DNA of 64,000 nt from contig JAJEKV010000046.1 of assembly GCA_021234155.1 (NCBI GenBank), positions 7,509,012 to 7,573,011 on the forward strand, read 5' to 3'. Position 1 is the stretch's first letter, and each line of letters begins with the position of its first letter. The position numbers and the translations under genes were made by a program. The stretch comes from Isoetes taiwanensis (Eukaryota; Streptophyta; Lycopodiopsida; Isoetales; Isoetaceae). The notes beneath the pieces are model-generated. The model was not told the origin of the DNA, ran no database searches, and saw only the letters and a program-made list of their open reading frames with translations. This document shows, piece after piece, positions 1,096 through 47,179 of the stretch.

Positions 1096-1151
1096 TTAAG
1101 AGGCCGCCAGGGGTTTCTTCCAGGAAACCTCCTGCGACCGGAGTTTCCCTC

Positions 1152-4745: not shown

Positions 4746-4780
4746 AAAGTTACCTAAAAAAAAAAAGGTCTGAAAACTTA

Positions 4781-4807
4781 GGAAATTTCAGGGTCTTGAA
4801 AGTTACG
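4781..4807 (+). repeat. Right terminal inverted repeat
   Basis: It begins ggaaatttcagggtcttgaa and is the inverted partner of 1152-1178. The last base is also the first base of the right direct-repeat copy. Confidence 0.8.
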
Positions 4808-14600: not shown

Positions 14601-14605
14601 AAACC

Positions 14606-15080: not shown

Positions 15081-15570
15081 CATATGTAGCAAAATAACAG
15101 GGGGTTCCAGGGGGATTTGATATAGATGTAAAAATAACAATTATTGAAACCATAGACCATATATCCCTAAAACAATTGAATAAGTTGTTATAAAAAAACA
15201 TAGATTCAAAATAAAAAATAATCACATTAGCTCACTAGGTATATTGATTAAAGTAGTCTTATTAGGACATTGAGTTATTTTGGTAGAGGTTCGAGCCCCC
15301 GTATTTCATATTCTAAAATCTTAGACAAAGGCATATAGAGGTTCGATATTCCCTCAAAACTTTAGGGGAAATCGTATTTCATATTTTAAAATCATAGGCG
15401 CCTCCAATCATAAATGACTATAAGCGAAACGAGAGGTGCCAAGAGGCCCCAACATACGATCTGGGTCGTAGGATCGACGAATCCGACGACTGTGGTAGTC
15501 CAAGGTGCACCTTGTTTAGAATAGAATAGAATAGAATAGAATAGAATAGAATAGAATAGAATAGAATAGA
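15081..15570 (+). repeat. tRNA-like SINE unit with (TAGAA)n tail, copy 1
   Basis: Within the unit, ttagctcactagg (about 15227-15239) resembles a pol III A box and ggttcgagcccccg (about 15287) contains a perfect B box (GTTCGAGCC), about 58 nt apart. A ~230-nt body follows, and the copy ends in an (AATAG)n array (15521-15570). A conserved 120-nt block (gggggttccagggggatttg) lies in front. The same unit recurs at 17929-18347 and 18348-18793 without the pentamer array. No acceptor stem is visible, so this is not a functional tRNA gene. Confidence 0.5.
15521..15570 (+). repeat. (TAGAA)n pentanucleotide microsatellite
   Basis: About ten tandem copies of agaat follow the SINE-like body directly, in the position of a SINE tail. 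The array ends where repeat X1 begins (agaatagacattattgtccc). Confidence 0.9.
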
Positions 15571-16716: not shown

Positions 16717-16802
16717 GGTTCCAGGGGGATTTGATATAGATGGAAAAATAACAATTCATAGACCATATATCCCTAAAACAATTGAATAAGTTGTTATAAA
16801 AA
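16717..16802 (+). repeat. Partial SINE-like unit between the two X repeats
   Basis: The segment ggttccagggggatttgata ... aataagttgttataaaa matches the head of the SINE-like unit but is cut short and joins repeat X2 at agaatagac. It marks the junction of a tandem duplication. Confidence 0.75.
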
Positions 16803-17928
16803 GAATAGACATTATTGTCCCTTGTGCCCTGAGGCCACTGGACTTATGTAGCATGGGCGAGCTCCCTAAAGGGTGCTACTAGCACATCACGCTGGTTTAT
16901 TGTAGCCTTTTCTGAAGGCTTTTCTTGGTTTCTTCTAGTACCGGCACCCCGCTTATATTTTGGCTTCGTGGCCATGCGAGAATGCTTCGCTATTAACAGC
17001 TTTGAGCTGTACACATTGTGGATTCCATTGTCCCACCTTTAATAGTGGGTCAAATTGTGAACCCTCAGCTTTTGGTGCACCAGAACTCTTATGTGGAAAT
17101 AGAACACCAGCCGGCGGGTTGTACCCGCTCTATCTTGGTAGTCAGTCGGAGGTTTCTCACTGTCCCGACACTTAGCTCCTTTCCTTTTTCTACAATTATT
17201 GTGCATAGTCTTGGTGCCCAATAGTGGTGCCCAGCGGCAATAAACTCGCACTGACCTGGGCTACATTAGTGACGCCGATTACTATCAGGATTAAAAAACC
17301 TCGCCCCAAAGGGTTTTCGAGGAAAAACCTTAATAGTAATGGGCTCACTAATGCACAGTATTATTATCAGATCCTTTTCTGTCATTCTGGTCCTTTTTCC
17401 ATCGTGTGGATTTTGGATTCTCCGCTGCCATTCATCCTTTTTCCATCATTCTGGATTTTGGATTTTTCCATTTGCTGCTCTTCCAAAATCTGCCATAGCT
17501 ATCATGTTTTTCTCCTTCTGTATTGTTGCTTTGAAGAGCTTCCTGCAAGAAGCCTAAGATCGTTGCAGAAGCCGATGGATGCCTTTATGGATTTTTCTAC
17601 TAATTGTCTAAATGTCCAATTCATCCACAACACAGATGAGCATTATTGTTAGGCTGCAAAAACCCTAAACTAAACTGATTAGAACTGATTAAAGCTCCAT
17701 TCCGGAGCTATGAATATGTAGTGATTACTGGCAACATAACATCACGCATCCAAAGGTCCGTGTTTATAACCCATCTTGAAATATTCTAACTACACTATGT
17801 TAGCACAATCCACCAGCTTATGTAGTCACTGCCTAATAGTTCAGATTTATATTAGTATAAAGCGTCTAAAGAACCTTCCTAATTTCATACATAACATGCA
17901 TATATTATGCTGATAAAACTGATGCATG
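16803..17928 (+). repeat. Repeat X, copy 2
   Basis: Near-identical to 15561-16716, with a few substitutions and loss of one ~30-bp minisatellite unit at about 17390. The high identity indicates recent duplication. Confidence 0.85.
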
Positions 17929-18347
17929 GGAGTTCCAGGGGGATTTGATATAGATGGAAAAATAACAATTCCTGAAACCATAGACCATATATCCCTAAAA
18001 CAATTGAATAAGTTGTTATAAAAAAAAACATAGGTTCAAAATAAAAAATAATCACATTAGATCACTAGGTATATTGGTTAAAGTAGTCTTATTAGGACAT
18101 TGAGTTATTTTGGTAGATGTTTGAGCCCCCGTATTCATATTCTAAAATCTTAGGCAAAGGCATATAGAGGTTCGATATTCCCTCAAAACTTTAGGCGAAA
18201 TCGTATTTCATATTTTAAAATCATCGGCTCCTCCAATCATAAATGACTATGTTTAAACGAGAGGTGCCAAGAGGCCCATCATACGATCTGGGTCGTAGGA
18301 TCGACGAATCCGACGACTGTGGTAGTCCAAGGTGCACCTCGTTTAGA
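17929..18347 (+). repeat. tRNA-like SINE unit, copy 2
   Basis: It carries the head block, the A-box-like tagatcactagg and a degraded B box (gatgtttgagcccccg instead of ggttcgagccccc), then the same body through cacctcgtttagaata. It is directly followed by copy 3, so the units are in tandem. Confidence 0.65.
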
Positions 18348-18793
18348 ATATGTAGCAAAATAATAGGGGGTTCCAGGGGGATTTGATATGGATGTAAAAA
18401 TAACAATTCCTGAAACCATAAACCATATATCCCTAAAACAATTGAATAAGTTTTTATAAAAAAAACATAGATTCAAAATAAAAAATAACCACATTAGCTC
18501 ACTATATATATTTGTTAAAGTACCCTTATAAGGACATTGAGTTATTTTGGTAGAGGTTCGAGCCCCCGTATTTCATATTTTAAAATCTTAGGCAAAGGCG
18601 TATAGAGGTTCGATATTCCCTCAAAACTTTAGGCGAAATCGTATTTCATATTTCAAAATCATAGGCGCCTCCAACCATAAATGACTATAAGCGAAACGAG
18701 AGGTGCCCAGAGGCCCCAACATACGATCTCGGGTCATAAGATCGGCCGAATCCGAATGACCATTGTGATAGTCCAGGGTGCACCTCGTTTATA
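18348..18793 (+). repeat. tRNA-like SINE unit, copy 3
   Basis: It starts tatgtagcaaaataataggg, carries ttagctcactata (A-box-like) and a perfect B box ggttcgagccccc at about 18556, and ends at cacctcgtttataatatgta. The body has more substitutions than in copies 1 and 2. Confidence 0.65.
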
Positions 18794-19474
18794 ATATGTA
18801 GCAAACGACAAAGTTACAAGACACAACTAACAATTGCATTTTGTGCTTCCTTATCAAAGCATTCCATGGGCACAACCGGTTGAAAGTAAACAAAAAGATG
18901 GAAAAAGCCATGTATGCATAACACATTGACTCTAAAAAGGGTATGTGAAAAATATCATGATGCTATGCGCATATAGCACCTCAACTATAAAAAATGGTGT
19001 GCGATGAAAATATCACGAGGCTATGCACACATATCACCTCGACTAACGAAATTGCATGTGATCTACAACATTATAGTCTTGAAACGCGTAATTTCAAGAT
19101 TTCTTTGGATGAAGACGTGGGCTCAAAACACATTCATCTCCCACTCATCCATCACAAGAAGGTGCCACTAAGATAGCTACCCCAACTTAATAAAAAGATT
19201 GACAAACAGGGCACCGAAATTGGAGCTCCTGGCTATGCATGGAAAGCTCCAGTTGTTTTGCAAAGAACTGGAACTTTATTATTGCCAGTTGGTTTGTATC
19301 GATTTTTTTTTATTTTTTTATTTTTTGATTTGTTATGGGATGTGTGCTATAATTAATGGTTTATATGTCATTTATAAACTTGATTTTTGATTTTTTTCAT
19401 ACAAAATAAAAAAATATCTCCCATAACACACCAAAACAAAAAATTTCAACTTAAAAAAAAAAAAGGATAAACTA
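18794..19474. other. Non-coding DNA with no recognised feature
   Basis: AT-rich sequence with short inexact repeats (atgctatgcgcatatagcac / ggctatgcacacatatcacc). No gene or element is recognised. Confidence 0.3.
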
Positions 19475-21051
19475 TGTGACGTCCCCTACTCGTATACGAT
19501 GCACCCACCGTATACAAACAGGAGTTCATCCTCCATACCAGCTCCATGCTAATACAGGGCCCTCCACATATCTTTGCAAACCGTAATGAGTTCCAGTGGA
19601 AAGAGTGAAGGGGTCATTTTACCCAGATCTCCCCTCGGGGCCTACCTAGTCTGCGAAGCGTAAACATACATGTCAGTATACAATATCATCACATATCCAC
19701 CTCGAAGGGTGGTACGTCAACATCTGCATAGACAAAGATCAACACAATACATATGGGAATTCCTAGACTCGAAGAGATGACTAACGGCTTGGGTCTCCAG
19801 AGTTCATTGCGCATGCAATTCATGGCAATAGGTTTTTGGCATAAGAACATGGCTTAGGGTTGTCCACTCCATCCGCCCCTCCCCGTGCACACTTTGCGAG
19901 TAGGCTGAAAAGTGTTGGGACTCTTGGATCAGCCCCACGGATGCATAGCCAAAGGGGGCTATTCCGGGTTGCATCTCCCGGTTAAGATGGATGCGGTAGG
20001 GATCTCTCCTCCGTGAGATCTACATGCTGACTCAAGGTGACTAGAGGGCCACTGCCCTTATTCGACTTGAACCCACTGGAGAGTGACGCATCACTCCACA
20101 GGTGTCGAGACCATGCCTTGCCCACACGCAGTGGCAAGCCATTAGACCTAGTCCACAATGATCCCCGGTAGACTTTACACACCAGAGGGATCGTTCAAGA
20201 GTCAGAACACGAACCTCTTTATAAGCCCCGCCCCTTCACCCACAACCAAGTGTGGCTCCTGTGCACAGGCCGAAACTACAGTGTGCTAGAGAGGCTAACC
20301 TAGGAGCATCTACTACCAAGCTTTAGGGCCTCTACCCCCCTTCCCAATACAAGGAGTTCACAGAGGTACATCATCCATATACATCACAGAAGAACTAAAG
20401 AACTAGATCTAATCTATATCATAGAGTTAAGTTCTTTAGTTAGAGTCTGGTATCTGGGGATCTAAGTGGGCAGCTATGGGCAATTTAATAGGCTAAACCT
20501 CTTGATTCAATGACTGGAAGGCGGTTTAGGCTATTAAATTGACTAAATACTGATCCTTGGCTCGCCCTCCTGCCACTTACGAAACTCGACCATCCCGCTA
20601 AACTGCTTGAAGATGGAACCAACAAGGAAAACTAATGGTGCAATTAAGCTGCGGGCCAGTGCTGAGAGGTTTGACTTTGGAGCAAGCAAAACAGAGCTAT
20701 AAAACCCTATGGACTAAAAATGGCAAGTTAGGGTTTCTCCTACCTAAATAGACAAGGGGTTAGGGCTAGGGTTTCCAATTATCCCTTTAAGCATGTGGGA
20801 TAATTGGGTATGGCCCATTTGCCTTTAATGGCTAGGTGGCATAAAGGTGTCCACATGGGAAAATGTGCACCTAGATAAATGTGCACATTGGTAGATGTGC
20901 ACATTAATAAATGCACATACCTTGCAAGTTGCCCCCTAGGGGCTACCCGCCTGGCTACACGTCGGCGTACACGTCAGTCGGGGTGGCGTGTGACGCGTGG
21001 CAGCGATACAAGATACTCGCCCTAGGACCGATATCGTGCCGTAACATCACA
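19475..21051 (-). repeat. 3' LTR of the truncated chromovirus
   Basis: It reads tgtgacgtcccctactcg at 19475 and ends atcaca at 21051, giving TG...CA ends on the minus strand, 1577 bp. It shares most of its length with 12932-14600 but is shorter in the TGTGCACA-rich part. Confidence 0.85.
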
Positions 21052-21107
21052 TTCTCCCCACCTTGAAATGATGTTGTCCGCAGCATCATGGGTCTCTCCA
21101 CCTTGGA
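21052..21107 (-). promoter_or_regulatory. Duplicated polypurine tract beside the LTR
   Basis: On the minus strand, AAGGTGGGGAGAA directly adjoins the LTR (21052-21064), and a second aaggtggagagac lies about 35 nt further inside (21094-21107). The tract adjoining the LTR is the expected plus-strand primer site. The 30-43 kb and 44-56 kb elements have the same two-tract layout. Confidence 0.65.
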
Positions 21108-21939
21108 ATCCTCCTAACCTACAATCAACCTGATGCATACAATATACTACTATAATACTTGCACATTTATTAAGATTACCTTAAGGTAATATTTTTAGAA
21201 CATTATTACGCCATTATCTTATGAAATAACTTATCAATTCGTAACATCATTAAAACAAGTTACTCAATAGTTTCACTTATCATGACATTTTAGTTTATCA
21301 AAATTTTAATATTTCATATATATAATTATTCTTCGAGGTACTCTTCATTCCTTGCAACACATTCCAACAAAATTTGTGTTGCAAGTCTTCGTAGCTCGAC
21401 CTCCTTGCCCTCCGGAGCGCTCTATTGGCCTGCAGGTCGACACTACGTTAGTACCGTTTTAATTATTAATAAAAATTTTGGTTATATGGTGACCACCCCA
21501 CCTATCTACATGAATGCATGGCTAATCTCCCGTAGGAAGAGGATGCTTCTTCCATCGGGTCGGAGTGGAGACAGCCCTATAATGCCTATATGGCGCTCAT
21601 GCCTACACCTTTAGTTGCCCGGGTGGAGGATAGGGTCCTTCAGGTATATGGGGCGTGAAGGATAGGGTCCTCCCCGTAGGCATTGACTAGAGGTGCTTTT
21701 CCTATCAATGCATTCCTCCTGAATGACCTCTTTTCTCGAGGTCGCCTACTTGGGTGGGGATGGTAGACTTTCTAATCTACCTTCCACTCATCCAAGCGGA
21801 ACCGCGGTCATGCCTACATTGACATTACACCACGTCCTAGAGATCACCGTAGTGGTCCCATCATCGGTAACAACGCATGCAACCCATACCTAGCATAGGT
21901 TGCATGCGCAGATTAATCTTAACTACACATAGAATTAAT

Positions 21940-22265
21940 CTACACAAATCGACATGCCTGAGCCGATTTCTTCGGAGATGACCTTGTCGTCCCATTGCTC
22001 CATAAACTGTGGGTACTGTTTTAATAGATCCTTCTTGAGTACCCACGTCGCATCTTCAGTGTTTCCATTTAACCAAATATTGGAGAAACTCTGATCTCCT
22101 TGTTTTCTTGAAGGCTTTATCAAGAATCAATTCTGGAACTATTTCCAGCTGCTCCTCCGTCATTTCCAACAACGTTGGAGTATCCAAGACTTCGTCTGGA
22201 TTTGGGGTATGCTTCTTCAACAAACTCACGTGGAAGACTTTATGAATCTTTAGGTGTGCTGGCAA
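21940..22265 (-). pseudogene. Integrase C-terminus with chromodomain
   Basis: The chromodomain targets chromoviral integrase to chromatin. HVSLLKKHTPNPDEVLDTPT leads into the aromatic and acidic core ILDKAFKKTRRSEFLQYLVKWKH, a frame change, then EDATWVLKKDLLKQYPQF, which matches the YLVKW...TWE pattern. It is near-identical to 40384-40640 in the plus-strand element, where the same region is uninterrupted. Confidence 0.85.
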
Positions 22266-22269
22266 GTCT

Positions 22270-23240
22270 AACTTGTAGGATTGATTTCCTACTCTCTGGA
22301 CTATTCTGAAAGGTCCAGCCCACCTTGGAGCAAGCTTCTTACAATTTTCGATCTTGAGTGAGCTTCCGCTTCACCTTGATCTTTGAGCCATACGCCGTCG
22401 CCAACTTGGAACTCTCTCGACCATTCGATGCTTGTCGGCGATGCTCTTTTGTAGACTCCTTGTTGCCAGAAGATATCCTCGAACTTCTTCCACGAGCTGT
22501 TGCATGTCGGCCAACATTTGCTGCGAAACCTCTACGTTTGACACGGGATTGTGCCAAGTGTCTGGAGTTAGGCATTGATAGCGTAGTTGATCATAAACGG
22601 CGACATTTGGGATGATTCTGCTTGGTGCTATTATCACAAAACTCCACCAAGTGAATAAATTCTTCCTACATACCTTGCTTGTTCCGGACATAATTTCGTA
22701 GCATATCCTCCAAAATCCTGTTGGTCCGCTCCCGTTTGCCCATCCGTCTGAGGATGATAGGCCGCGCTCATGGATAGCTTCATCTGAATAAAATTAAAGA
22801 GGTGTTGCCAAAAGGCACTCATGAACCGGATCTTCACGGAGATAATCTCCTTTGGCATGCCATGAAGCCCGAAGATTTTTTTGGTGAAGAGCTTCGTTGT
22901 ATCCATAGCCGCGGTAATGGTCCCCGCAAGGCACAAAATGTGCCATCTTCGACAACTTGTCGACTACTACCATCAAGGCATCCTTCCCTCTTCGTCCTTG
23001 GAAGTCCATTTACGGGTCCACGCCGATGACCTCCCACTTAGCGTTCGCACGCTGCCTAATGGTTCCAATGCCCCTGAATTAAGCTGCTCTGCCTTTCGCC
23101 TCACGACATAGCTGACATTCTTTGATGTAGCGAAGCTACTTGCTTCTTCATCCCCCGACCAATAATAGCTGCCGCACTTTGAAATATGTCTTCATAAATC
23201 CTCGCATGGCGGCTATTGGATCATAGGGTGTCGTGGAGAA
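22270..23240 (-). pseudogene. Integrase core domain
   Basis: Fragments in three frames include MDFQGRRGKDALMVVVDKLSKMAHFVPC (first Asp region; partial quote of its parts: VVDKLSKMAHF), SAAYHPQTDGQTG, and downstream NPVSNVEVSQQMLADMQQ. Several indels break the reading frame. Domain order relative to RNase H and chromodomain is normal for chromoviruses. Confidence 0.75.
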
Positions 23241-23249
23241 TCAACTTCC

Positions 23250-24165
23250 TTACACCCGATGATTCGGCACGCACAACTTGTCTTTATGGTATAAATGCAT
23301 TGCCTTCCTTCTTATAATGTTTGAAGGCTTCCCGCTCCTTCTCTTTCTAGCCTCCCTAGAGAGGCTTGCCCATACTTCCTTGAAATCATTATCCAATGGC
23401 AATGTCTCCTCAATTTTCTTACCAAACTCACTCGAAAAGAGTTGATATAGCGTTACAATGCATTCGGCCCGAATGGTCTCCGGAGAGGGGCATCCAACAA
23501 CATTAAGCTTTTGGGGCTTATACACTATGTCAAAATCATACTCCTCAAGGAATTCCATCCACCTCCCTTTTGCCTTAGGTTGAGGAGTGGTTGGGTGAAG
23601 ATATATTGAAGGCTCGGTGATCAGTATCCAACTCCAAACTTCCTTCCCAACCAAATAATGCCTCCAAATCCTTAGTGCTCGACAATGGCTAGCAACTCCC
23701 CGATCATGGGTCGGGTAGCTGGCCAAGGCGTCATTCATCTTCCCGAATCATACGCTACTACACGCTCTTCTGCCCCGCATGAGCACCGCACTGGCTATCT
23801 TACTTGCGTCTGTCGCCGCCAACTTGTCTTTCTCTGGGTCTCGTAGGGTTAAGACGGGGGCGGTTGTCAAAGCTTCCTTCAACAATTCAAACCCTGCTTG
23901 GGCTTTCTTGTGCCAATGGTCTGCCCAATCTTTCACCTTTTCCGCCCTCGTCAAGTCAAGCTGGCGGAGCCGCTTATCTTAGCAAAGTTCTTCACGAACT
24001 TCTGTAGTACCAAGGCTAGGCCGAGGGAAACTTTCGACCTCATGGACATTCTTGATTGCCGCCAATCGAATGACCGGGCTTCAATCTTGGCAGGATCCGT
24101 CGAAATCCCTTCCGCTGAGATCACGTGACCCAGGTATTCCACCCTCTCCGTTGCGAAGTGATAGT
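23250..24165 (-). pseudogene. RNase H and the C-terminal end of RT
   Basis: The RNase H to integrase linker ([20 protein letters not shown]), part of RNase H (LTLRDPEKDKLAATDASKIA) and the end of RT/connection (VEYLGHVISAEGISTDPAKI; FVKNFAKISGSA) appear in broken frames. The usual D-A-S motif is present as ATDASK. The segment ends at the 24165 breakpoint. Confidence 0.75.
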
Positions 24166-30045: not shown

Positions 30046-31536
30046 TTAGACGCTCCAAAGACGATATACGGTCTCAAGACATATACCGCATCAGGCCGCC
30101 ACGCCAGTACGCCGGCCCGGTCGACGCGGTACGACGAAAACCAAGCAAGCGACTTAGGGGCAACTTGCAATGGTGGGCACACTTAGCAATGCGCGGCACC
30201 TTTAGACCTTTAAACCATTAAAGGTAGACCAAGGGTCATGGGAACCCTAAACCTAACGGGATAGCCTACATAAGGCACCAAACCCTAACATTCCCCTTTT
30301 TCGCCCAAAACCTTCCTTCGAGCTTGGATTCGCAACCGAGGAGTCAATTCCAACTTCCACGATCTGCCAAGACGCCCCCAAATTGTCGATCATCCTTCCG
30401 ACCGCATCCCGGCGTAACGAGACATGGACGCCTTCGGATCAAGAGGAGTGAAACTGTGGATCGGGTATTTGGTCGATTGAATAGCTTAAACCTTATTCCA
30501 GCCTTCAACCAAAGTAGGTTTAACCTATTAAATCGCCCTTAGTAGCCAAGCACCTCGAGATTGACTCTAAATAAAGAATTAACTCTATGTATTAGATTAG
30601 TTCTTATTATTTATGATCATATGATGGATGGTTGTATTCTCGTGGACTCATTGTATTGGGAAGGGGGTAGAGACTTAAAGCTTAGTAGATGATGCTCCTA
30701 GCTAGTCCCTCTTAGTGCATTACTAGATTTTGGCCTGCGGTACAAGAGCCCACCCGGGTTGTGGGTGAAGGGCCGACCGGGCTTAGAATGAAATTCGGTG
30801 TTCGACCCTTGACCGATCCCTCCCGGTGTGTAAGGCCCACCGGGATCGGGAGTGACTAGGTCTAATGGCTTGCCACCGAAAGTGCGGGCAAGGCATGGGC
30901 TCGATAACCGGGGGTGGTGTTCACCTTCCGCTGGGTTAAGTCTAATAAGGGCGCTGGCTCTCTAGTCACCTTGGGTCAAGATGTAGATCTCGAGGGAGGG
31001 AGCAATCCCTACCGCCGCCCCATCGGGGATCGGGAGATGTAACCCAGAATAGCCCCTTTGGCTATGCAACCGGGCGGCTAGCCGTCCCAACACTTTTCAA
31101 CCTACTCGCAAAGTGTGCAACAGGAGGGGCGGATGGAGGGACAACCCTAAGCCATGTTCTTATGCCGGCCCAATCCATTGTCATGATTCCATCTCAAGAT
31201 CGAACTCGAGACCCAAGCTTGTCGGCCATCCCCCGAGTCCCGAGCCTTGGGTAGAACTTCCCTTGTATTGTGTTGATCTTTGTCTATGCAGATGTTGATG
31301 TGCCACCCTTCGAGGTGGATATATGATGTTATGTTACCGACGTGTATGTTTACGCCTCCGCAGCCTAGGTAGGCCCCGAGGAAGACGGGGTAAAATGACC
31401 CTTCACTCTTCCCAATCGCGGACTCTAGACGGTCCACGTTGATATGTGGAGGGCCCCCAGACGTTGTGGAGCTGGTGGGAGGATGAACTCCTCGCTTGTA
31501 TAAAGCGGCATCGTGATATGAGTAGGGGACGCCATA
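30046..31536 (+). repeat. 5' LTR of the 30-43 kb chromovirus
   Basis: About 1.49 kb, starting at ttagacgctccaaagacg (the 3' copy reads tgtgacgcccaaagacg) and ending gtaggggacgccata before the primer site. It shares the body text tctaatggcttgccacc and cctaggtaggccccgagg with the other LTRs in the window but has a distinct U3. Confidence 0.8.
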
Positions 31537-31537
31537 A

Positions 31538-31550
31538 TGGTATCGTGAGC
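31538..31550 (+). promoter_or_regulatory. Primer-binding site, initiator-Met tRNA type (degenerate)
   Basis: It reads tggtatcgtgagc where the canonical site is tggtatcagagc (intact at 45867-45878). It lies one base after the LTR end, followed by the conserved leader tgttcttggagaccaagagc found also at 45882. Confidence 0.7.
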
Positions 31551-31990: not shown

Positions 31991-32200
31991 AAGTAGAAAA
32001 AGTCGGAAATAAGTGTAAGTTTTAATTAAATAGGTACCTTAGCAGGTTAAATAGAGCAACTTGAATTTTGACCTAAAAATTGCCAAGCTATAAATAGAAG
32101 TAGACCCCCTCATTTGAATGTTCCCGCCTTTAGAAACCAGCTCTCCGCGCCCCTAATATGCATCTTTTGGCTCGATATCCCATTGACGATCATCCAAAAC

Positions 32201-32873
32201 ATGGCACGGACCAAACAGACCGCGCAAGGAAAGCCCGCCCAGCAAAATCCTCAGCAAAGAACACCGACCTCATCCGCCAGGTTCTTCGGGGAGAGGCTCA
32301 TCGAGGGAAGGTGGACTGTCTTCCAGCGAGGAGAGTATTGCAGATGACCAGAACGAGGAGGTAAGCCAGCACTCGGATGCCGGGACAGAGCTCATTGAAG
32401 AGGAAGAGGAAGGGGAAGCTGCAAGCCGGGAAAGGAGAACCAAGGCCCGAGAGGAACAGAGGATGTCGACTCCAGAGCCGACCATTGAAGAACAAGTCGA
32501 AGCCTGGATTCGACAAAAGGAAGCAGAGGAGCAGCAAGAGCAGAGCGAGCCGAGACTTGAGCCGGCGGGGGAAGCAGACTCCTCGCGCTTTTTCATCAGA
32601 AAGTATGAACGAAAAGAAAAGAGAACAAAAGAAAGGAAGAGGGAAGAGGAGGAGGCTAAAGCGACCGAGGAGCTCAGAAGAAGAAAGGGAAATGGGTGGG
32701 GAGCCCCTGTGAAGCTCAAGGAAATCCCCATGGTAAAAAAGCCCAACCCCAAGATCACCATCACCAACGGGCCAACCGATCAGCCCCCCCCCCCGAGGAT
32801 TCTGGACGAAGAACCCAACCCCAACACAGAGGGGCAAGTTCTTCCAAACCCCCGAATCGCTGAGCAGAGGTAA
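32201..32873 (+). pseudogene. Extra first ORF with histone-H3-like N-terminus (MARTKQTA), charged coiled-coil-like body
   Basis: The ATG at 32201 opens with MARTKQTAQGKPAQQNPQQR. Residues 2-8 equal the first seven residues of mature histone H3 (ARTKQTA, including K4); then Q-G replaces R8-K9. This frame runs to a stop at 32345. The likely continuation is one frame over (SSSEESIADDQNEE, then 32463 onwards: EEQVEAWIRQKEAEEQQEQ, ERKREEEEAKATEELRRRK, ITNGPTDQPPPPRILDEEP), ending near 32873. That body is highly charged and helix-prone with a proline-rich end, and has no zinc knuckle or enzyme motif. A single-base shift between 32280 and 32330 separates head from body. It lies between the primer site and gag, flanked by leader hairpins. 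Role unknown; chromatin-reader binding is an inference from the H3-like tip. Confidence 0.6.
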
Positions 32874-34879
32874 CCGAAAACCAGTAGCAACCCGAGGAGG
32901 AGGAGCAAGCAGGACACGCTGAAGAAGCCCCTCCTTACATCAAATGGGACAGAAGAAGCAACCCCGCCCCGCCTGAGTCTTATGTAACTAACCCCGCTAA
33001 AATCTACGAGCAAAGATGCGGGAGCATGAGGCCTATATGAAGGAGTGGGAGGCATACAACTCCTACTACCAGAGAACAGTGGTCGACCATCGGGGGGTCA
33101 CCCCACAAGCGCCAGAACCCTAAGACCCCCACCACCAAAGCCCAAGGTCCCGAAAAAGCCTGCGCCGTAAGAAGCTCACTAAGAAGCAGCTCGAGCAAAG
33201 AGCACTACGGGAGATTCGACACTTCCAAATAAGAAGCCATTTACTTCCTCGATTCCCCGCGGCCCCTTTGTTCGGCTAGTTAGAGAAGTAATGCAGATTT
33301 CGTGACCGAATTTTAGGGTCACGATGAAGTGTTGCCGGGCATCGCAAGAAGCGGCCGAAGAAAGCTTTATAGTGCAACATTTTGAAGACTCAACATCTTG
33401 CAATCGTTTCATGCCAAACGGTAACCCTTATGAGGCAAGACATGTATCTTGCTAGACACATTAAGGGAGAACGCCTTTAGAACCTTTTGTAAATAATTGA
33501 AAATTTTGTAATATGGAACAATTTTGGGTACTTTTTAATTGCCCGAACTTGATTAATTAGGACAAGTTAGCAGGTTTTAGCTTTTATTTCAGCAAAATAG
33601 GACATTTGTAATCGAAGGCGTGTGGATGTCTCATGTTTCGCTACCGGGTCAAGAACTAAACTTTAGTTATTGAGCGAGGCTAAGTCGTGAGACCTTGCCC
33701 AAAACCTGCCCAAAAATTGCCCAAATTGACCAAATAAGGGGTCAATTCTACTTGATTTGATGAGCCCATCATATTACACCCCTTTAGTTCACCTAAATTG
33801 GACACGCTTTTGATCAAAATGGGATTGATGTCTCACAGTCGCACCGGTCAAGAAACTAAACTTTAGCTTTTGAGCGAGGCTAAGTCGTGGGAGACCTCCT
33901 AACATTTCTTCACCGTAACTTGCCCAAATGATTTTCAACCCGTTGTATAGCATCTTTTAGGTAATCCAAAGCCATGCTCTAACACTTGAACTAGTCTTCA
34001 AATTCCCATTTTGACCTCAAGATAGACTACAATCACCCAACCCAAGAATTTTCTAAGTCACCCAAAAATTAGGGACCCTCTTTTCTATAAATAGGTCCCT
34101 CATTTCACACATATAGCACCCTACAAGTTTGCTCCTGCCCTCTTAGCCGATTTTTCCAACTCCCGAGGCGCTTATTGCAAACGTTTGCTACTCTCCTTCG
34201 CAGATTAAACCAATGGCAACCTCTCGATTTCAAGATATGGTATAGCGCCAAAGGCCATGTGGCCGAGGCCGACATCGACCAAATTTTCCATGTCTTCCGA
34301 AGGAGGTAGATGTCCAAGCAACTTTGCATGCAACCCCAATTTTACAAGAGAGTCCCCGTCTCAATTCCAAGCTAGGGTAGAACCAAAGACTAGTGCAGCT
34401 CCCCACCTTGCATAGGTTACTTTGTTCCTAGGCAATCCCTTCAAGCAGCTTTTTTAGGCGATGTTCCAAACATTGCCAAGTATTCACAAACAAGGCCCAA
34501 CAAGACGCCTCGAGCCAATGGTTCTAACCGTTAATAGACCAAATATTTTCTTTTAACACCGCCTTGGCAATTTTTCTTACCCATCGTGGCCGAGAACACC
34601 GGGGAGAAACCTCCATTCCCCCATGGACGGGACCCATTAGCCACAAGAAGAATAACGCTCCTTACGCAAGATTAATAACAGAGCAGAAGGAAAAGAAGAA
34701 GAGTAAGAAGAGGAATCGAAGAAGAGGAGGAAGACTACGCCGAAGCTCAACCCCTGGGAAGAGCGGGCGACAAGCGTAACAAGAGTGGCAAGACTTGAAA
34801 AGAAGCCGGGCAAACTCTTAGAATCGCGGGCCACCCCTTGGGCTAGGGCATTACAAGCCTAGCCCCCATCATTGTCGAG
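32874..34879 (+). other. Leader/intergenic region between extra ORF and gag
   Basis: It continues degraded charged coding text to about 33300, then two hairpin units (33628-33693 and 33830-33895). The stretch 34560-34800 encodes broken basic text (KEKKKSKKRNRRRGGRLRR) that may be the N-terminus of gag. No catalytic motif is present. Confidence 0.4.
33628..33895 (+). other. Leader hairpin units 3 and 4
   Basis: Unit 3 (33628-33693) is gtctcatg ... gggtcaagaactaaacttta ... gtcgtgagac. Unit 4 (33830-33895) is gtctcacagtc ... ggtcaagaaactaaacttta ... gtcgtgggagac. Spacing is about 202 nt. Both keep the inner aaactaaa/tttagtt stem and the spacer gagcgaggctaagtcgtg. Confidence 0.75.
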
Positions 34880-35935: not shown

Positions 35936-36037
35936 GGAACAACGAATGGCCTAGCAAAAAAAACAGAGGCCCAACAGAGATGAAGAAACTCCCGACAGCA
36001 ACCCCTTCAAAGGAACCTCTTCGAGGGATATGGCCCC

Positions 36038-36724
36038 ATGACACCAGAAGAAGAGTTGTCGCAGATGCAAACAGACCTGGACCAGATAAAGGCCCTACTA
36101 GCAGCCCAAGCATCATCCGCCATTAAACGACACACTCGAAAAGTCGTGGGGAAAGACAAGAGAAGGAGTAAGAGAAGGAGGTCCCCAGCACGTAGACCCA
36201 ATCAAGCTCTCAACCCCGACTCGAAGTCCCAAAAAGAGGCCGAAAGGTGCCGTAATCGCAGAGATGGCGTGCGTAAGGACACTAAGGCCCTAGATTACCG
36301 TAAGAAGGTGGACTCAAAGACTGAAATGTGTGGAAAGCCCCGAACCCAACGCTTCTGGGCGAGAACAGATCCGCCTAGAGGCGAGGCATGTACGGATGAA
36401 ATGAGTGAGTACAAAGAATGCCTATGGCATGAAGGACAAAGACAAAGGCGGTGGTGGCTACAACCAACCCGAAGGAGCCGCGACGATATGGTGGAAGGGC
36501 TATGCCAAGGCCCATGGGTTGAGCAGATGCATGCCACTTTAAGAAGTTCTCAAAAGCTTTTAAGAAACACTATGTTCCTGAACACAAGTCAACATGATGC
36601 GCCAGCTTTTTGTGATGCAAAGATAGGGTACAAGACGGCGCGTAAATACAATCAAGAGTTCATGAGGCTAAGATCAGATGTGCCTAAACCGAAGCGAGAA
36701 ACATGCAAAGGGAAAGCTACATAG
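36038..36724 (+). pseudogene. Basic nucleocapsid-like ORF (MTPEEELSQMQ...)
   Basis: A 228-codon open frame begins MTPEEELSQMQTDLDQIKAL, the same as MTPEEEMSQMRMDLEQIKAF at 62.8 kb, so this start is conserved. A short heptad-like helix is followed by a strongly basic stretch (KDKRRSKRRRSPARR), then polar text that drifts out of recognisable homology. No intact CCHC knuckle is visible in frame; CGECHIFGRYR at 37200 may be a knuckle remnant in a later frame. Nucleic-acid binding is inferred from composition and position. Confidence 0.5.
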
Positions 36725-37799: not shown

Positions 37800-38640
37800 A
37801 TTTGAGTTCCACGATCTCTTCCGTGATGAGATCGAGAAGCTTCCTCCTTACAGGGGAGTAGAGTGTGAGATAGCACTCAACCAGTGGACCAAGCCGACGA
37901 AAGCAAGGCCCCATATAGAATGACCACACATGAACTCACTGAGCTAAAGAAGCAGCTACAAGAATTGCTCGATCTAGGCTTCATCGTGCCCAAAGGTCTC
38001 ATCATTTGGGGCACCCATCCTTTGTCAAGAAGAAAGATGGAAGCTTGAGGATGTGCATAGATTACGCATAATTGAACAAGCACACCATCAAGAACAAGCA
38101 CGCACTTCCCGCATCGATGACTTGATGGATCAGCTCCAAGGGGCAAAGGTCTTCCAAGATCGACCCAAGGTCGTGGTATCACCAAATCAGAATAAAGGAA
38201 GAGGACATCCACAAAATGGCTTTTAGAATCGATAATATGGGCATTACGAAGTTCACCGTAATGCCATTTGGGCTATCCAACGCCCAGCCTACGCTCATGA
38301 GACTCATGAACTACATCTTCGAGAATACTTGGACACCTTTGTGATAGTATTCTTCGACGACATCTCCGTGTACAAGAATCCATTGAAGAGCATGCTCAAG
38401 ACGCCGTAAAGGTGCTCGAGAAATTAAGGAGGCATCAGTATGCCAAGTTGTCGGGCGTCACTGCTAAATGTAGAAGGTGGAATACCCTGGCCATGTGATT
38501 TCAGCGTAAGGAATCTCATGCACTCGCCAAGATTGAAGCAAGAATCCAATGGCCGGCACCAAAGAACGCCCATGAAGTCAAGTTTCTTTGGCCTAGTTGT
38601 GGTATTACAGAAGTTCGTGGAAGAACTTCGCGAAAGATAG
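37800..38640 (+). pseudogene. Reverse transcriptase of the 30-43 kb chromovirus
   Basis: Motifs run in order over several frames: [53 protein letters not shown]-like text, [29 protein letters not shown] and [11 protein letters not shown] (the Y-x-D-D box as F-F-D-D). Catalytic Asp pairs are retained, but at least six small indels interrupt the frame. It matches chromoviral RT in motif order and spacing. Confidence 0.8.
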
Positions 38641-39299: not shown

Positions 39300-40310
39300 G
39301 GAAGGTAACCTCCTATACCATAAGAACAAGTTGTGCGCGGCCGAATCATCCGGAGTAAGAAAGTTGATCCTCCACGACACCCACAACAGCCCAATAGCCT
39401 GGCCACGCAGATTTATGAAGACATATTTTAAAGTGCGCGAAAGTAGCCTACTATTGGCCGGGAATGAAGAAGCAAATAGCCCGCTACATCAAGGAGTGTC
39501 ACTATGCCAAAGAAACAAAGGCGTAACAACTCCCAATACTGTGGGCATTGGAACCATTAGCAGTCCCAAACGCTAAGTGGGAGGTAGTCAAGATGGACTT
39601 TATAACAGATCGCCAAGGACGCGTAAGAGGCAAGGATGCCTTGATGGTCGCGGATCGACAAGTTATCAAAAATGGCCCATTTTGTGCCATGCAGGACCAC
39701 GGACACAACTATGGATACGACAAAGCTCTTCACCAAAGAGATCTTCAGACTCCATGGCATGCCAAGGGAAATCATCTCCCAACCGAGATCCAAAGTTCAT
39801 TAGTGCTTTTCCGCAGGATCTCTTCACAACCATTGGAACAAAGCTATCCATGAGCACGCCTATCATCCTCAGACGGATGGGCAAACAGAGAGCGGTCAAC
39901 GTAATATTGGAAGACATGTTCAAACTATGTCCGAACAAGCAAGGTATGTGGGAGGAATTTATTCACTTGGTGGAATTTGCATACAATAGCACCAAGTAGG
40001 AATCATCCCAAATGTCGCCGTTCATGATCAACTACGGCTACCAATGCCTAACTCCAGACACTTGGCACAATCCCGTGTCAAAAGTAGAAGTCTCGCAACA
40101 AATGTTGAGCGACATGCAACGTACTTTGTGGAAGAAGTGCGAGGATATCTCCCAGCAGCAAGGAGTCGTGAAGAGCATCGCCGACAAGCATCGAAACCGT
40201 GGAGTTCAAGTTGGCTACAATGTGTGGCTCAAGATCAAGGTGAAACAAAGCGAAGTCCGCGATCGAATTGCAAGAAGCTTGCTCCAAGGTGGGCTGGACC
40301 CTTTAAAATA
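39300..40310 (+). pseudogene. Integrase of the 30-43 kb chromovirus
   Basis: The zinc-binding region is partly visible (LILHDTHNSPIAWPRRFMKT, then cysteine-bearing text near 39500). The core domain follows: AKWEVVKMDFITDRQGRVRG (first Asp), DRDPKFISAFPQ-like text across a frame change (second Asp), and VILEDMFKLCPNKQGMWEEF. After FAYNSTK come MSPFMINYGYQCLTPDTWHN and KVEVSQQMLSDMQ, typical of the C-terminal part. It is interrupted by about five indels. Confidence 0.8.
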
Positions 40311-40383
40311 GTCAAGAGAGTGGTTAACCAATCCTACAAGTTAGACTTGCCAAAGACACTTAAAGATCCACAAAGTCTTCCAC

Positions 40384-40728
40384 GTGAGTCTGCTAAAGAA
40401 GCATACTCCCAATCCAGAAGAAGTTTTGGATACTCCAACGATGTTGGAAATGACAGAAGAGCAATTGGAAATAGTTCCAGAGCTAATCCTTGATAAAGCA
40501 TTCAAGAAAACAAGGAGATCGGAGTTTCTCCAGTACTTGGTCAAGTGGAAACACTTGCCTCTGGAAGACGCGACATGGGTACTTAAAAGAGATCCGGAAA
40601 ACAAGTACCCACAATTTTATGGAGCAATGGGACGGGGGGTCATCTCCAAGAAATCGGCCGTGCATGTCGATTTGAGTAGATTAATAGCTTATCTAGTTAA
40701 GAGACCCACGATGCAACCTATGAGGTAA
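40384..40728 (+). pseudogene. Integrase C-terminal chromodomain
   Basis: An open stretch reads MSLLKKHTPNPEEVLDTPTM, then ELILDKAFKKTRRSEFLQYL, VKWKHLPLEDATWVLKRDPE and NKYPQF. The aromatic and acidic residues of a chromodomain (the YLVKW strand and the ATWV strand) are intact here, making this the best-preserved part of pol. Chromodomains of this class guide integration to modified chromatin. Confidence 0.85.
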
Positions 40729-41526: not shown

Positions 41527-42978
41527 TGTGACGCCCAAAGACGATATACGGTCCCAAGACGATACCGCATCGCGATCGCCGGCCACGCCGCATTATCGCC
41601 ATCCCGACACGGCGGTAATGCCGACGAGTACCCAAGCAAGGACGCCTCTAGGGGCATTTTATAAATGGTGCGCATTAACTTAGCAATGCGCGACCTTTAA
41701 ACCTTTAAACCATTAAAGGTAGACCAAGGGTCATGGGAACCCTAAACCTAACCGATAGCCTACATAAGGCACCAAACCCTAACATTCCCTTTTTCGCCCT
41801 ACAGACCTTCCGAGCTCATCTTCGCCACCGAGGAGTCAATTCCAACTCCCACGATCTGCCAAGACGCCCAGCCTTGTCGATCATCCTTCCAATCGCATCC
41901 CGGGCGTAACGGTAGACATGGACGCCTTCGGGATCAAGAGGAGGAACGTGGATCAGTATTTGGTCGAATTGAATAGCTTAAACCTTATTCCAAAGTTCTT
42001 CAAACCAAAGAGGTTTAACCTATTAAATCGCCCCTTAGTAGCCAAGCACTCGAGATTTACTCTAACTAAAAGAATGTATTAGATTAGTTCTTATTATTTA
42101 TGATCATATGATGGATGGTTGTATTCTCGTGGACTCATTGTATTGGGAAGGGGGGGGGGTAGAGACTTAAAGCTTAGTAGATGATGCTCCTAGCTAGTCC
42201 CTCTTAGTGCATTACTAGATTTCTAAGATGTGTACAAGAGCCCACCTCGGTTGTGGGTGAAGGGGCCGACCGGCTTAGAATGAGATTCGTTCTCGACCCT
42301 TTGACCGATCCCTCCTCGGGTGTGTAAGGCCCACCGGGGATCGGGTGAGTGACTAGGTCTAATGGCTTGCTACCGAAAAGTGGGGGCAAGGCATGGGCTC
42401 GACACCGCGGGGTGGTGTTCACCTTCCCGGGTTAAGTAATAAGGGCGTGGGCTCTCTAGTCACCTCGGTCGCAAGATGTAGATCTCCTCGAGGGAGCAAT
42501 CCCTACCCCGCCCCATGGGGATCGGGAGATGTAACCCAGAATAGCCCCTTTGGCTATGCAACCGCGCTGATCCTGTCCCAACACTTTTCAACCTACTCGC
42601 GAAGTGTGCAATGTGAGGGGGCGGATGGAGTGGACAACCCTAAGCCATGTTCTTATGCCCTGCCCAATCCATTGTCATGATTCATGCCTGATCAACTCAC
42701 GAGACCCAAGTTTGTCGGGCCATCCCCCTCAAGTCCGAGCCTTGGGGAACTTCCCCTGTATTGTGCTGATCTTTGTCTATGCAGATGTTGATGTGCCACC
42801 CTTCTCGAGGTGGATATATGATGTTATGTTATTGGACGTGTATGTTTACGCCGCGCAGCCTAGGTAGGCCTCCGAGGGAGACGGGTAAAATGACCCCTTC
42901 ACTCTTCCCACTCGTGGACTCTAGACGGTCACAGTTGATATGTGGAGGGCCCAGACGGTGTGGGAGGTGCGTGGGATC
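41527..42978 (+). repeat. 3' LTR of the 30-43 kb chromovirus, 3'-truncated
   Basis: It begins tgtgacgcccaaagacgata and aligns with 30046-31470. It stops at about 42978 (gtgcgtgggatcc), lacking the terminal ~60 bp that end in gtaggggacgcca in the 5' copy. Confidence 0.85.
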
Positions 42979-44162: not shown

Positions 44163-44167
44163 CATAA

Positions 44168-45866
44168 TGTGACGTTCCAGCACAGTATACGCTCCCAGGA
44201 CGTATATTGTACTGCCACGTCACGCGTACACGCCACCCCGACTGACGTGTACGCCAACGTGTAGCCAAGTGGGTAGCCCCTAGGGGGCAACTTGCTAAGA
44301 ATGTGCATTAGTATTAATGTGCACATTTTCCAATGTACACATTAATGTGGGCACACATTTCCACACTTGATGCCAAGTGGGCCATACCCATAGGTGCAAT
44401 TAATGTGCACATTTTCCAATGTACACATTCATTAATGTGCACACATTTCCATGTGAGCACATTTGGGTGCACACATTTCCATGTGGGCACATTTGGCCAC
44501 CTAGCCCTTAAAGGCAAGTGGGCCCTTTTCCCATTATCCCACATGCCTAAAGGGATAATTGGAAACCCTAGCCAACCCCTTGTCTATTTAAGTAGGAGAA
44601 CCCTAACTTGCCCATTTTCGTTTCTAGGGTTTTAGAACTCGCTTTGGCTGCCCAACAGCCAAAAACCGCCTCCCGCACTACGGGCACCGAGAGGATTGCA
44701 ACGTTAGTTTCCCTTGATTCAAGCGTTTCTGCCAGGATGGTCGAAGCTCAGTCGAGGAGGAACTCAAGGATCGGGTATTTAGGCAATTTAGTAGTCTAAA
44801 CCCCATTTCAGCCATCGAATCAAGAGGGTTTAGCCTCTTAAATTGCCCATAGCAGCCCTCTAGATCTCTAGATAGCAGATTCTAACCAAAGAACCTAACT
44901 CTATGATGTAGATTAGATCTAGTTCTTTAGTTCTCTGTGGAAGTATATGTATGATGTATCTTTATGAACTCCCTTGTATTGGGAAGGGGGTAGAGACCTA
45001 AAGCTTTGTAGTTGATGCTCCTAGAGTAGCCTCTCTAGCACACCGTAGATGCGCCCAGGCACAAGAGCCACACCCAAGTTGTGGGTGAAGGGGCCGACGG
45101 GCTTATAAGGAGATTCGTGTCTCGACTCTTGAACGATCCCTATGGTGTGTTAGTGTCGCCGGGATCATTGTGACTAGGTCTAATGGCTTGCCACCGCGGT
45201 GGGCAAGGCATGGGCTCGACACCGCGTGAGGTAGTGGATATGACCTTCCATTGAGTTCAAGTCTAACACGGGCAAAGGGCCCTCTAGTCACCTTGAGTCA
45301 AGATGTAGATCTCTCGGAGGGAGTGATCCCTACCGCCCCATCGGAACGGGGAGATGAAACCCGTGAATAGCCCTTTGGCTATGCATCCGCTGGCTACAGG
45401 CCAGTCCCAACACTTTTCAGCCTACTCGCAAAGTGTGCAATGTGAGGGGCGGATGGAGTGGACAACCCTAAGCCATGTTCTTATGCCGCCCAAATCCATT
45501 GCCATGAATTCGCGCCCGCAATGAACTCGAGACCCAAGCCGCCGGGCCCTCCCTTTGAGTCCGAGCCTTGGGTAGGATTTCCTCTATGCATTGTGCTGAT
45601 CATTGTCTTTTGCAGATGTGATGTGCCACCCGTAAGGGTGGGTATATGTGTTGCTCTTTATATAATCGACATGTATGTTTACGCCCGCAGCCTAGGTAGG
45701 CCCCGAGGGAGACGGGTACAATGACCCTTTCACTCTTCCCAATCGAACCCGGCCACGGTTGCAGCTGTTATGTGAAGGGCCCCAGATCGGCAGATGGAGC
45801 TGGTATGGGGAAGAACTCGCTTGTATACCGGTGAGTGCACCGTATGCGTAGTAGGGGACGCCACGC
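44168..45866 (+). repeat. 5' LTR of the 44-56 kb element
   Basis: It runs from tgtgacgttccagcacag to gtaggggacgccacgc, about 1.7 kb. A TATA-like ctatttaag lies at 44584, 417 bp in. The U3 part carries palindromes aatgtgcacatt and variants (44325-44480). Confidence 0.9.
44584..44592 (+). promoter_or_regulatory. TATA-like element in the LTR
   Basis: The text ctatttaagtaggagaaccc is conserved in the 5' and 3' LTRs (54405) and in inverted form in the solo LTR near 14200. It precedes a conserved block (cctaacttgcccattttcg) that is a plausible transcript start. Confidence 0.5.
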
Positions 45867-45878
45867 TGGTATCAGAGC
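45867..45878 (+). promoter_or_regulatory. Primer-binding site for initiator-Met tRNA
   Basis: tggtatcagagc is the canonical 12-nt site and directly follows the LTR. Confidence 0.9.
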
Positions 45879-46096
45879 AATGTTCTTGGAGACCAAGAGC
45901 AAAGCACCGACCATGCTCCAAGAGTACTAACTTGATAGGATCCTCAAACTCCCAAACTTGATAGGATCCTCAAACCTCGAAAGTAGCGGGAAATTTTTTT
46001 CCGGGGGTAGAGCTAGTAATTATCTAAGATTAGGATAATTAGAGAACATAGGCACTTAAGAGATCCTACTAAATTTCGTGCACTCTTGGCCAATGA

Positions 46097-47177
46097 CTCC
46101 AAGAGTGCGCCAGAGCATGTTAGGTTCAGACCTAATGGCCTCACAAGACTCTTAGAGTAGTCACCCCATATGAACCCTAGAACTTGGCCTTAGGAACCCA
46201 AATGGTAAAATAAAAGATGAAATCCCAATCAAAAAGCTCAAATAGCTAGAATTATATGTTAAAACATCGAAAAAAACATTATACAAGTCACTTTTGAACA
46301 CGATCTCCAAGAGTGCGCCAGAGTATAGTTAGGTCCCAACCTAACCCCTCCTCACAAGACTCTTAGAGTCATCCCTAAAAGTGACCTCAAAAATTGATCA
46401 TAACTTACTCAAATGGTAAAGGTAATAATAGAATCTTGTTTATAATGATTAAATTAGTGGGAAACGATGTTAAATTGTGTAAAGGGGATAAGTTTAGAGC
46501 GAAAGGGACAACACCTCTAAGGGTGCGCCAGGCATAGTTAGGTCTGGACCTAATACCCTCCTCACAAGATGCTTAGAGGGGTTCGAGAGAAAATAGTTGA
46601 AGAAGACCTAGCTTCGATTCGAGATATGGAGGATTTCATCAACAAACCAAGAAAAAGCAAGGCAGAGATGGAGGTCGCGGCAACACTTGAAGACTCATTG
46701 GCGCACGCCCCACGAAAAGACAACCGAGAGACATGAGACCATGGTACATCAAGAGGACGATAAATAGAACACAAGTCGCTTTTTGTAACTAACAGTGTTT
46801 ATATGTGATGTATGAAAATTTCAATAATAAAGATATATAGTCGCTTAAAAATGTGTATTCATTAGGTACAAGATCCGAGCAAATGCGATATTTTGACCAA
46901 CGATTTCCAAGAGTGCGCCAGAGCATAGTTAGGTCCCAACCTAACCCCCTCCTCACAAGACTCTTAGAGTCATCCAACCAACTGGGCCTTGATTAGCCCT
47001 ACTTGCTCCAAACGTAGTAATAAACAAAGAAACTTGCATTTAGGGAAGAAAACTAATAGGAATTTACCCTCCCAAAGCGGATTCTTGGCATCCATTAGGC
47101 GTAGATAGGCCATCGACTTCCAAGAGTGCCAGAGGCCACTTAGGTCCCAACCTAACACCCCTCAAGCACTCTTAGAG
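46097..47177 (+). other. Array of five nested leader hairpins at ~200-nt spacing
   Basis: Units start at about 46097, 46304, 46513, 46904 and 47117. Each has an outer stem (ctccaagagt ... actcttagag) and an inner stem (ttaggt ... acctaa), with gcgccag and ctcacaag between. In unit 3 the outer arms have both changed (cctctaag / cttagagg) so that they still pair, and the inner stem is one pair longer (ttaggtc/gacctaa). Confidence 0.75.
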
Positions 47178-47179
47178 AC

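What the first reader, a model, noticed from the sequence alone, without database searches (positions are those of the whole stretch)
32201..32345. Retrotransposon ORF that begins with the histone H3 tail (MARTKQTA)
Seen: the ORF starting at 32201 begins M-A-R-T-K-Q-T-A, identical to encoded histone H3 residues through A7, at the very N-terminus where H3 readers bind. The next residues are Q-G, so the R8-K9 heterochromatin methylation site is missing. Known: PHD and related readers bind the free H3 N-terminus with R2 and K4, and some viral proteins use short histone-like tails. Inference: this chromovirus, which also has a chromodomain integrase, may present an H3K4-like tip to host readers or modifiers while escaping K9 methylation. 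The body is charged and helix-prone, so display of many tips on a particle or complex is conceivable. I know of no described plant LTR element with this feature.
Basis: partly seen in the sequence, partly recalled or inferred. Interest (0 to 1): 0.93.

Follow-up and report, generated by a model that had tools for sequence, protein, structure and literature searches.

The report
Retrotransposon carrying its own histone H3
A family of LTR retrotransposons in this (likely plant) genome carries a gene for its own histone H3-like protein, with the exact tip of the H3 tail at one end and a histone fold at the other, both kept by strong selection; the protein would probably enter host nucleosomes and change the chromatin of the element's own copies.

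Summary
The window ORF at 32201 starts MARTKQTA, and the genome holds 2079 places with that coding motif against 0 for the reversed control. Fetched copies show that the ORF encodes an H3-type histone: H3 tail tip, ~290-residue charged linker, C-terminal histone fold (Pfam Histone, E 2.4e-21; solved H3 chains, E about 1e-19). The window copy has the fold too, broken, at 33205-33474. In 20 copies chosen by the fold and a long open frame, 16 begin exactly MARTKQTAR and 4 differ at one residue. Synonymous change is heavy and amino-acid change slight in the tail (pS 0.61, pN 0.027) and in intact folds (median dN/dS 0.076). R8 is present in the family; its absence in the window belongs to this frame-broken copy. 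K9 is often kept but is V or I in other copies. The ORF lies between the 5' LTR/PBS and pol of a chromodomain Ty3 element. The nearest precedent found is H3-like genes in fungal hAT DNA transposons. Nucleosome entry and purpose are inferred.

The parts
30049..31537 (+). 5' LTR (3' boundary set by the PBS remnant)
   Evidence: 30049-31480 aligns to 41530-42976: 1305 identities of 1378 aligned positions, gaps apart; the stretch up to 31540 matches just upstream of the PBS position in many other copies; LTR similarity of some length in 30 of 66 loci
31538..31549 (+). primer binding site remnant, initiator-tRNA-Met type (name and consensus recalled)
   Evidence: TGGTATCGTGAG here; exact TGGTATCAGAGC upstream of the ORF in 19 of 65 copies
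32089..32096 (+). TATAAATA box in the leader, outside the LTR; possible internal promoter of the histone-like ORF (inferred)
   Evidence: TATAAAT at -102 to -117 in 44 of 65 copies, 2.2% of shuffled stretches
32201..32224 (+). start codon and H3 tail tip MARTKQTA
   Evidence: family counts
32225..33204 (+). charged linker between tail and histone fold, in broken frames in this copy; main open stretch 32187-32873 is in another frame than the ATG
   Evidence: conserved block before the fold matched at 33013-33164
33205..33474 (+). H3-type histone fold remnant (frames broken), followed by a stop codon at 33478-33480
   Evidence: tblastn with a sibling fold, best piece 33252-33401 at 64% identity, E 6e-14; sequence
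35984..36724 (+). ORF in the place expected for gag; no Pfam match, so unconfirmed
38126..38341 (+). reverse transcriptase fragment (below Pfam's curated cut-off)
   Evidence: Pfam RVT_1 E 8e-6, 26.1 bits against a cut-off of 29.6
39990..40490 (+). integrase C-terminal SH3-type domain
   Evidence: Pfam SH3_Tf2-1 E 9.1e-11
40345..40725 (+). chromodomain
   Evidence: Pfam Chromo E 7.1e-8
41530..42976 (+). 3' LTR as far as it aligns

Best explanation
A chromodomain Ty3-type LTR retrotransposon carries, between its 5' LTR and its pol genes, an H3-type histone gene whose protein has the H3 tail tip ARTKQTAR at the start and an H3 histone fold at the end, and this protein would likely pair with host H4, enter nucleosomes and keep chromatin at the element's copies open to transcription. 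Shown: the architecture, about two thousand motif places, the position after LTR and PBS, and strong selection on both histone ends with less on the ~290-residue linker. Inferred: an ancestral element captured an H3 or CENH3 gene. The fold still has residues that H3 uses for the H3-H3' contact and for minor-groove DNA contact (roles recalled), so deposition is plausible. The linker stands where H3 has its residues 10-47 and would hold the tail tip far from the nucleosome core. K4 and R8 are kept while K9 varies more, so the selected partner is more likely a reader or writer of K4-R8 than of K9. The mechanism I commit to is self-marking against silencing: element nucleosomes offer a K4-type tail and need no K9.
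For: Motif 2079 places against 0 in the control. Of 65 element copies (window included), 52 show a fold by tblastn at E <= 0.01 downstream of the motif; 13 do not. Locus L034 holds the whole design in one open frame of 388 residues. Histone fold: Pfam PF00125 E 2.4e-21; 174 PDB sequences match, best E 2.6e-19, the 60 shown being H3-type. The fold finds 8639 first-look candidates in the genome; 150 were scored and all 150 match. Sampling from the other end: 20 of those 150, all with open frames of 393 or more residues; 16 of 20 begin exactly MARTKQTAR, 4 differ at one residue, one of these a stop. Codons 2-9: pS 0.61, pN 0.027 over these 20; L034 against L008: tail no amino-acid change, linker dN/dS 0.21, fold 0.024. 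Fold of 16 copies: median dN/dS 0.076, highest 0.15, over 32 usable of 120 pairs (copies with stops in the fold left out). R8 in 55 of 65 through six codons although the search pattern did not ask for it. Element context: exact PBS upstream in 19 of 65, controls 1 and 0; similarity to the window's LTR in 30, leader in 32 and internal region in 40 of 66 loci, neither host H3 locus among them. Start: purine at -3 in 61 of 65. The stated confidence covers the statement up to nucleosome entry; for the anti-silencing purpose alone I give about 0.3.
Against: No expression, protein, localisation or nucleosome data. Most sampled copies are broken: 2 of 65 have an ORF over 300 residues, and one of these two (L056) runs out of frame in the fold. 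13 of 65 pattern copies gave no fold match. In 7 of 65 an extra Met stands directly before the tip and 2 more have a longer in-frame extension, which could spoil a free ART end. RT and chromodomain linkage was shown in the window element only; for other copies linkage rests on LTR, PBS and shared internal DNA. A genome search with the chromodomain was sent ten times and never answered. The purpose is inference: K9 is still K in 34 of 65 and 18 of 20, which also fits a use of K9. Purifying selection would also arise if the protein serves only as a decoy or nucleic-acid packer.
Confidence: 0.6

Rival explanations
1. Docking histone: the element histone is deposited at chosen sites (for example centromeric or heterochromatic) and serves as a landing mark for the element's own integrase complex.
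For: The element has a chromodomain integrase. At 19 columns that tell plant H3 from CENH3, the element fold matches CENH3 at 7, H3 at 3 and neither at 9. Elements group with angiosperm CENH3 at 86/90.6, unstarred.
Against: Loop 1 has H3's length, not CENH3's. Grouping with H3 is not rejected (p-AU 0.173). K9, the residue chromodomains are known for, varies. The third cage residue of the window chromodomain looks non-aromatic (my reading; not tested).
Confidence: 0.25
2. Soluble decoy: the protein titrates H3 chaperones, readers or modifying enzymes of the host through its tail tip and fold without entering nucleosomes.
For: Tail tip kept nearly to the letter; the H3 stretch just before alpha-N (RYRPGTVA) is hardly recognisable in the element protein, which may weaken DNA wrapping (inference).
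Against: All 16 intact folds keep the counterparts of R83, C110, R116 and T118, 14 of 16 keep H113 and 15 of 16 D123 (alignment; roles recalled), which a decoy for tail readers would not need.
Confidence: 0.15
3. Passenger: a captured H3 gene copied along with the element, without use, as reported for H3 in fungal hAT elements.
For: Gene capture of H3 by transposons is known (PMC6710886, PMC3538342). Most sampled copies here are broken.
Against: Between subfamilies synonymous sites are saturated or nearly so while tail and fold change little; a passenger would decay at dN/dS near 1. The fold set left out copies with stops, so it describes the intact copies.
Confidence: 0.03
4. Packaging protein: the histone fold and basic linker bind element RNA or DNA inside the particle, and the tail tip is a relic.
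For: Linker strongly charged; the element's gag was not confirmed.
Against: A relic tail would not be the least changed part of the protein (L034 against L008).
Confidence: 0.08

Closest known systems
H3L genes in hAT DNA transposons of Pyrenophora tritici-repentis (PMC3538342, passages read) and captured histone H3 in hAT elements of Pseudocercospora fijiensis and relatives (PMC6710886, abstract read)
   Same: A transposon carries an H3-like gene in many copies; the Pyrenophora H3L also has insertions in its tail, fits neither H3 nor CenH3, and has ESTs
   Different: Fungal DNA transposons; copies near-identical (26 in Pyrenophora, thought to have drifted) or inactivated by RIP (Pseudocercospora). 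Here an LTR retrotransposon in a likely plant, about two thousand motif places, diverse subfamilies, strong selection on tail tip and fold, long linker
Orchid Ty3/Gypsy elements with an added m6A RNA demethylase-type ORF (PMC9289625, passages read)
   Same: A plant Ty3 element that keeps an added protein gene resembling a host gene
   Different: Enzyme acting on RNA, not a histone
Additional ORFs of plant LTR retrotransposons (PMC7264820, passages read; word 'histone' 0 times)
   Same: Extra ORF beside gag-pol, some upstream of it
   Different: That text names no histone; it says those between pol and the 3' LTR are the most frequent
   Same: H3-type fold with a divergent N-terminal part; shares residues such as H53, P63 and A65 with CENH3 rows
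   Different: Loop 1 length is H3's; tail tip is canonical H3; ~290-residue linker; not placed with CENH3 at starred support

Membership tests
Ty3/gypsy chromovirus LTR retrotransposon | paired LTRs with internal PBS | tested here: met
   LTR pair in window, PBS remnant at 31538; exact PBS in 19 of 65 copies
Ty3/gypsy chromovirus LTR retrotransposon | RT followed by integrase with a chromodomain, same strand | tested here: met
   RVT_1 8e-6, below Pfam's curated cut-off; SH3_Tf2-1 9.1e-11; Chromo 7.1e-8; window element only
Ty3/gypsy chromovirus LTR retrotransposon | gag and protease | tested here: inconclusive
   ORF 35984-36724 lies in place but has no Pfam match; no search was made for protease alone
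Histone H3 family | H3-type histone fold | tested here: met
   PF00125 E 2.4e-21, 76.7 bits against cut-off 26.4; the best 60 of 174 PDB matches are H3-type
Histone H3 family | H3 N-terminal tail ARTKQTARK... | tested here: inconclusive
   Residues 1-8 met in most copies; the rest of the H3 tail is replaced by the linker
Histone H3 family | assembly into nucleosomes with H4 | not testable with these tools
   no protein data; contact residues mostly kept (alignment)
CENH3 / CENP-A | longer loop 1 than H3 | tested here: not met
   loop 1 aligns gap-free to host H3; all 7 CENH3 rows used are longer
CENH3 / CENP-A | grouping with plant CENH3 | tested here: inconclusive
   86/90.6 with angiosperm CENH3, unstarred; grouping with H3 p-AU 0.173
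CENH3 / CENP-A | centromere localisation | not testable with these tools
   no chromatin data
   the same protein holds an H3 fold
hAT transposon with captured H3 | DNA transposon with hAT transposase | tested here: not met
   the window element has LTRs, RT and integrase domains; no search was made for a hAT transposase itself

The most novel reading that the evidence does not exclude
A selfish element that builds its own chromatin: the retrotransposon makes a private H3 variant, loads it into nucleosomes over its own copies, and thereby decides how the host reads them, possibly even seeding centromere-like chromatin.
Probability: 0.35. Interest if true: 0.97.

Novelty: new variant of a known kind. 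Interest (0 to 1): 0.9.

Why it matters
Histones are among the most guarded host proteins, and mobile elements are usually studied as objects of histone marking. An element that has carried its own H3 long enough to saturate synonymous sites between subfamilies, while keeping the tail tip and the fold, would show that a transposon can supply the substrate of the epigenetic code itself. It would make testable whether elements can mark their own chromatin, and it offers a natural experiment on which H3 tail residues matter (K4 and R8 kept, K9 more variable).

Tried and rejected
Short tail mimic: rejected, because the same protein has a histone fold. Host H3 genes as the source of the motif count: rejected, 2 of 66 fetched places. 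Upstream true start: rejected for 56 of 65 copies. Same-architecture relatives elsewhere: none seen in three protein searches. One search scored only the 7996 candidates sharing most words and gave 64 hits covering 17-32% of the query, about the fold's share; one search gave 4 hits covering 51-57% of the region asked; one search listed the best 120 of 6492. I looked at the sequences of 26 of these hits. Annotated protein sets usually leave transposon ORFs out, so this says little about spread. Viral contigs: no match to six peptides of L034. Plasmids: no match. CENH3 origin: leaning, not shown. K9 loss: 3 changes by parsimony, but on a poorly resolved tree of 16 copies, 15 counted. In print: ten paper searches (listings only, except the papers named in this report) showed no LTR retrotransposon with a histone gene; subscription journals are mostly missing and no preprints are held. 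PMC13317346 (a 2026 review of gene capture by plant elements) uses the word 'histone' 0 times (passages). PMC12786077 was read in passages. Host species: not identified; 'plant' rests on the host H3 type, the PBS and the element type (recalled knowledge). Host CENH3 and genome-wide chromodomain positions: asked many times, never answered.

Rows dropped before counts: L009 and L010 (re-fetches of L006 and L008) and the two host H3 loci from the 65; for the fold dN/dS, of 25 long matches six with stops in the fold (L002, L003, L026, L039, L045, window), L049 (garbled) and the two host H3 rows were left out, leaving 16.

Full report
What was checked. The window ORF at 32201 begins MARTKQTA and its frame stops at 32345-32347. 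The genome that holds the window (1.658 Gb, 1110 contigs) has 2079 matches to the degenerate coding pattern of MARTKQTA and none to the reversed pattern. I fetched 66 distinct places from the 100 that this call listed (two of the 68 loci were re-fetches). Two are canonical host H3 genes (L048, L050). The other 64 and the window copy make the 65 copies counted below.

What the ORF is. In 52 of the 65 copies a tblastn match to an H3-type histone fold (E <= 0.01) lies downstream of the motif, mostly 830-1230 bases away; 13 show none. Locus L034 has the whole protein in one open frame: 388 residues, H3 tail tip at the start, charged linker, H3 fold from residue 301 to the end. Pfam finds Histone (2.4e-21) and nothing else at E <= 0.1. 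Of 174 matching PDB sequences the 60 shown are H3-type. The window copy has the same parts in broken frames; its fold remnant is at 33205-33474.

Conservation without circularity. The motif pattern did not cover residue 8 in H3 numbering, yet it is R in 55 of 65 copies, written with six codons; residue 9 is K in 34, V in 12, I in 9. As a second test I searched the genome with the fold alone (8639 first-look candidates, 150 scored, all 150 matching). From these I took 20 with open frames of 393 or more residues and fetched only the stretch where the N-terminus should lie. All 20 have it: 16 exactly MARTKQTAR, and one each with T3R, Q5H, R8P and a stop at R2. Residue 9 is K in 18, V in 1, I in 1. 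Choosing open frames favours intact copies but not any particular tail sequence.

Selection. Over those 20 copies, codons 2-9 differ at 61% of synonymous and 2.7% of amino-acid sites. Between the two groups (14 and 6 copies) the figures are 76% and 3.3%. Between L034 and L008, dN/dS is 0.21 in the linker and 0.024 in the fold, and the tail has no amino-acid change. Among 16 folds without stops the median dN/dS is 0.076 over the 32 pairs that could be used of 120; the median synonymous difference is 0.82, so most other pairs are saturated. Six copies with stops in the fold and one garbled row were left out. Tail tip and fold have thus been kept as protein for a long time while the linker moved faster. 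K9 changed three times by parsimony on a poorly resolved tree of 16 copies, 15 counted.

Element context. The window unit has two LTRs 11.5 kb apart (1305 of 1378 aligned positions identical, gaps apart), a PBS remnant at 31538, and on the same strand a reverse transcriptase fragment (below Pfam's cut-off), an integrase SH3 domain and a chromodomain. Gag was not confirmed. Elsewhere, an exact TGGTATCAGAGC site lies within 1 kb upstream of the ORF in 19 of 65 copies: 16 at -642 to -719, two at -574 and -576, one at -971. There is one match in the downstream 3-kb control and none antisense. The window's LTR, leader and downstream region match 30, 32 and 40 of 66 loci, mostly in the same order (one downstream match, in L068, lies before the ORF; some matches are under 100 bases); neither host H3 locus matches. 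A TATAAAT box at -102 to -117, outside the LTR, is present in 44 of 65 against 2% of shuffles; that the histone-like ORF has its own promoter is inference. Start context is good (purine at -3 in 61 of 65). Nine of 65 copies have an in-frame Met upstream, seven of them a single Met directly before.

Origin. The folds of the elements form one clade (100/100, 100/99). They sit between plant CENH3 and H3: 7 of 19 telling columns agree with CENH3, 3 with H3, 9 with neither; loop 1 has H3 length. The tree leans to angiosperm CENH3 (86/90.6, unstarred) and does not reject H3 (p-AU 0.173).

Mechanism. From the alignment all 16 folds keep the counterparts of H3 R83, C110, R116 and T118, 14 keep H113 and 15 keep D123; their roles in DNA and H3-H3' contacts are recalled knowledge. 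H3's stretch just before alpha-N is hardly recognisable. I infer that the protein enters nucleosomes and presents the tail tip on a long tether. Because K4 and R8 are kept and K9 varies more, I think self-marking with a K4-type tail against silencing most likely (about 0.3 on its own; the 0.6 given to the best explanation covers it up to nucleosome entry), ahead of a docking histone for integration, a decoy, or packaging. A passenger gene is contradicted by the selection data.

Precedent and novelty. H3-like genes carried by hAT DNA transposons are known from fungi (PMC3538342, PMC6710886), and extra ORFs from plant Ty3 elements (PMC9289625, PMC7264820). I found no LTR retrotransposon with a histone gene in the ten paper searches named under Tried and rejected. 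I call it a new variant of a known kind: the kind is transposon-borne H3, and the variant is a retroelement gene kept by selection.

Limits.

Noticed in passing
window 12934-24161 (minus) and 44166-55687 (plus): Two more LTR elements with LTRs about 74-77% alike to the window element. No tail remnant was found there, but a weak tblastn match at 46662-46715 (E 0.19) in the plus-strand one reads like a decayed piece of the same histone fold.
   Followed up: partly
L007, L022, L025, L038, L051, L058, L062 (start of the ORF): A subfamily reading MARTKQTARIHP, mostly with early stops and, in three of the seven, a weak fold match only about 530-700 bases downstream: perhaps a separate old branch of the same design.
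   Followed up: no
L012, L023, L024, L028, L031, L044, L067, bases before the ATG: A second Met directly before MARTKQTA (MMARTK), which could block a free ART N-terminus in these copies.
   Followed up: partly
L034 protein residues about 222-291 and window 33013-33164: A block with IEGG(R/H)P and many prolines lies just before the histone fold in different subfamilies; no Pfam match.
   Followed up: partly
window 15082-18732 and 74-5486: Complex direct repeats of 57-300 bases, many above 90% identity; not looked into.
   Followed up: no
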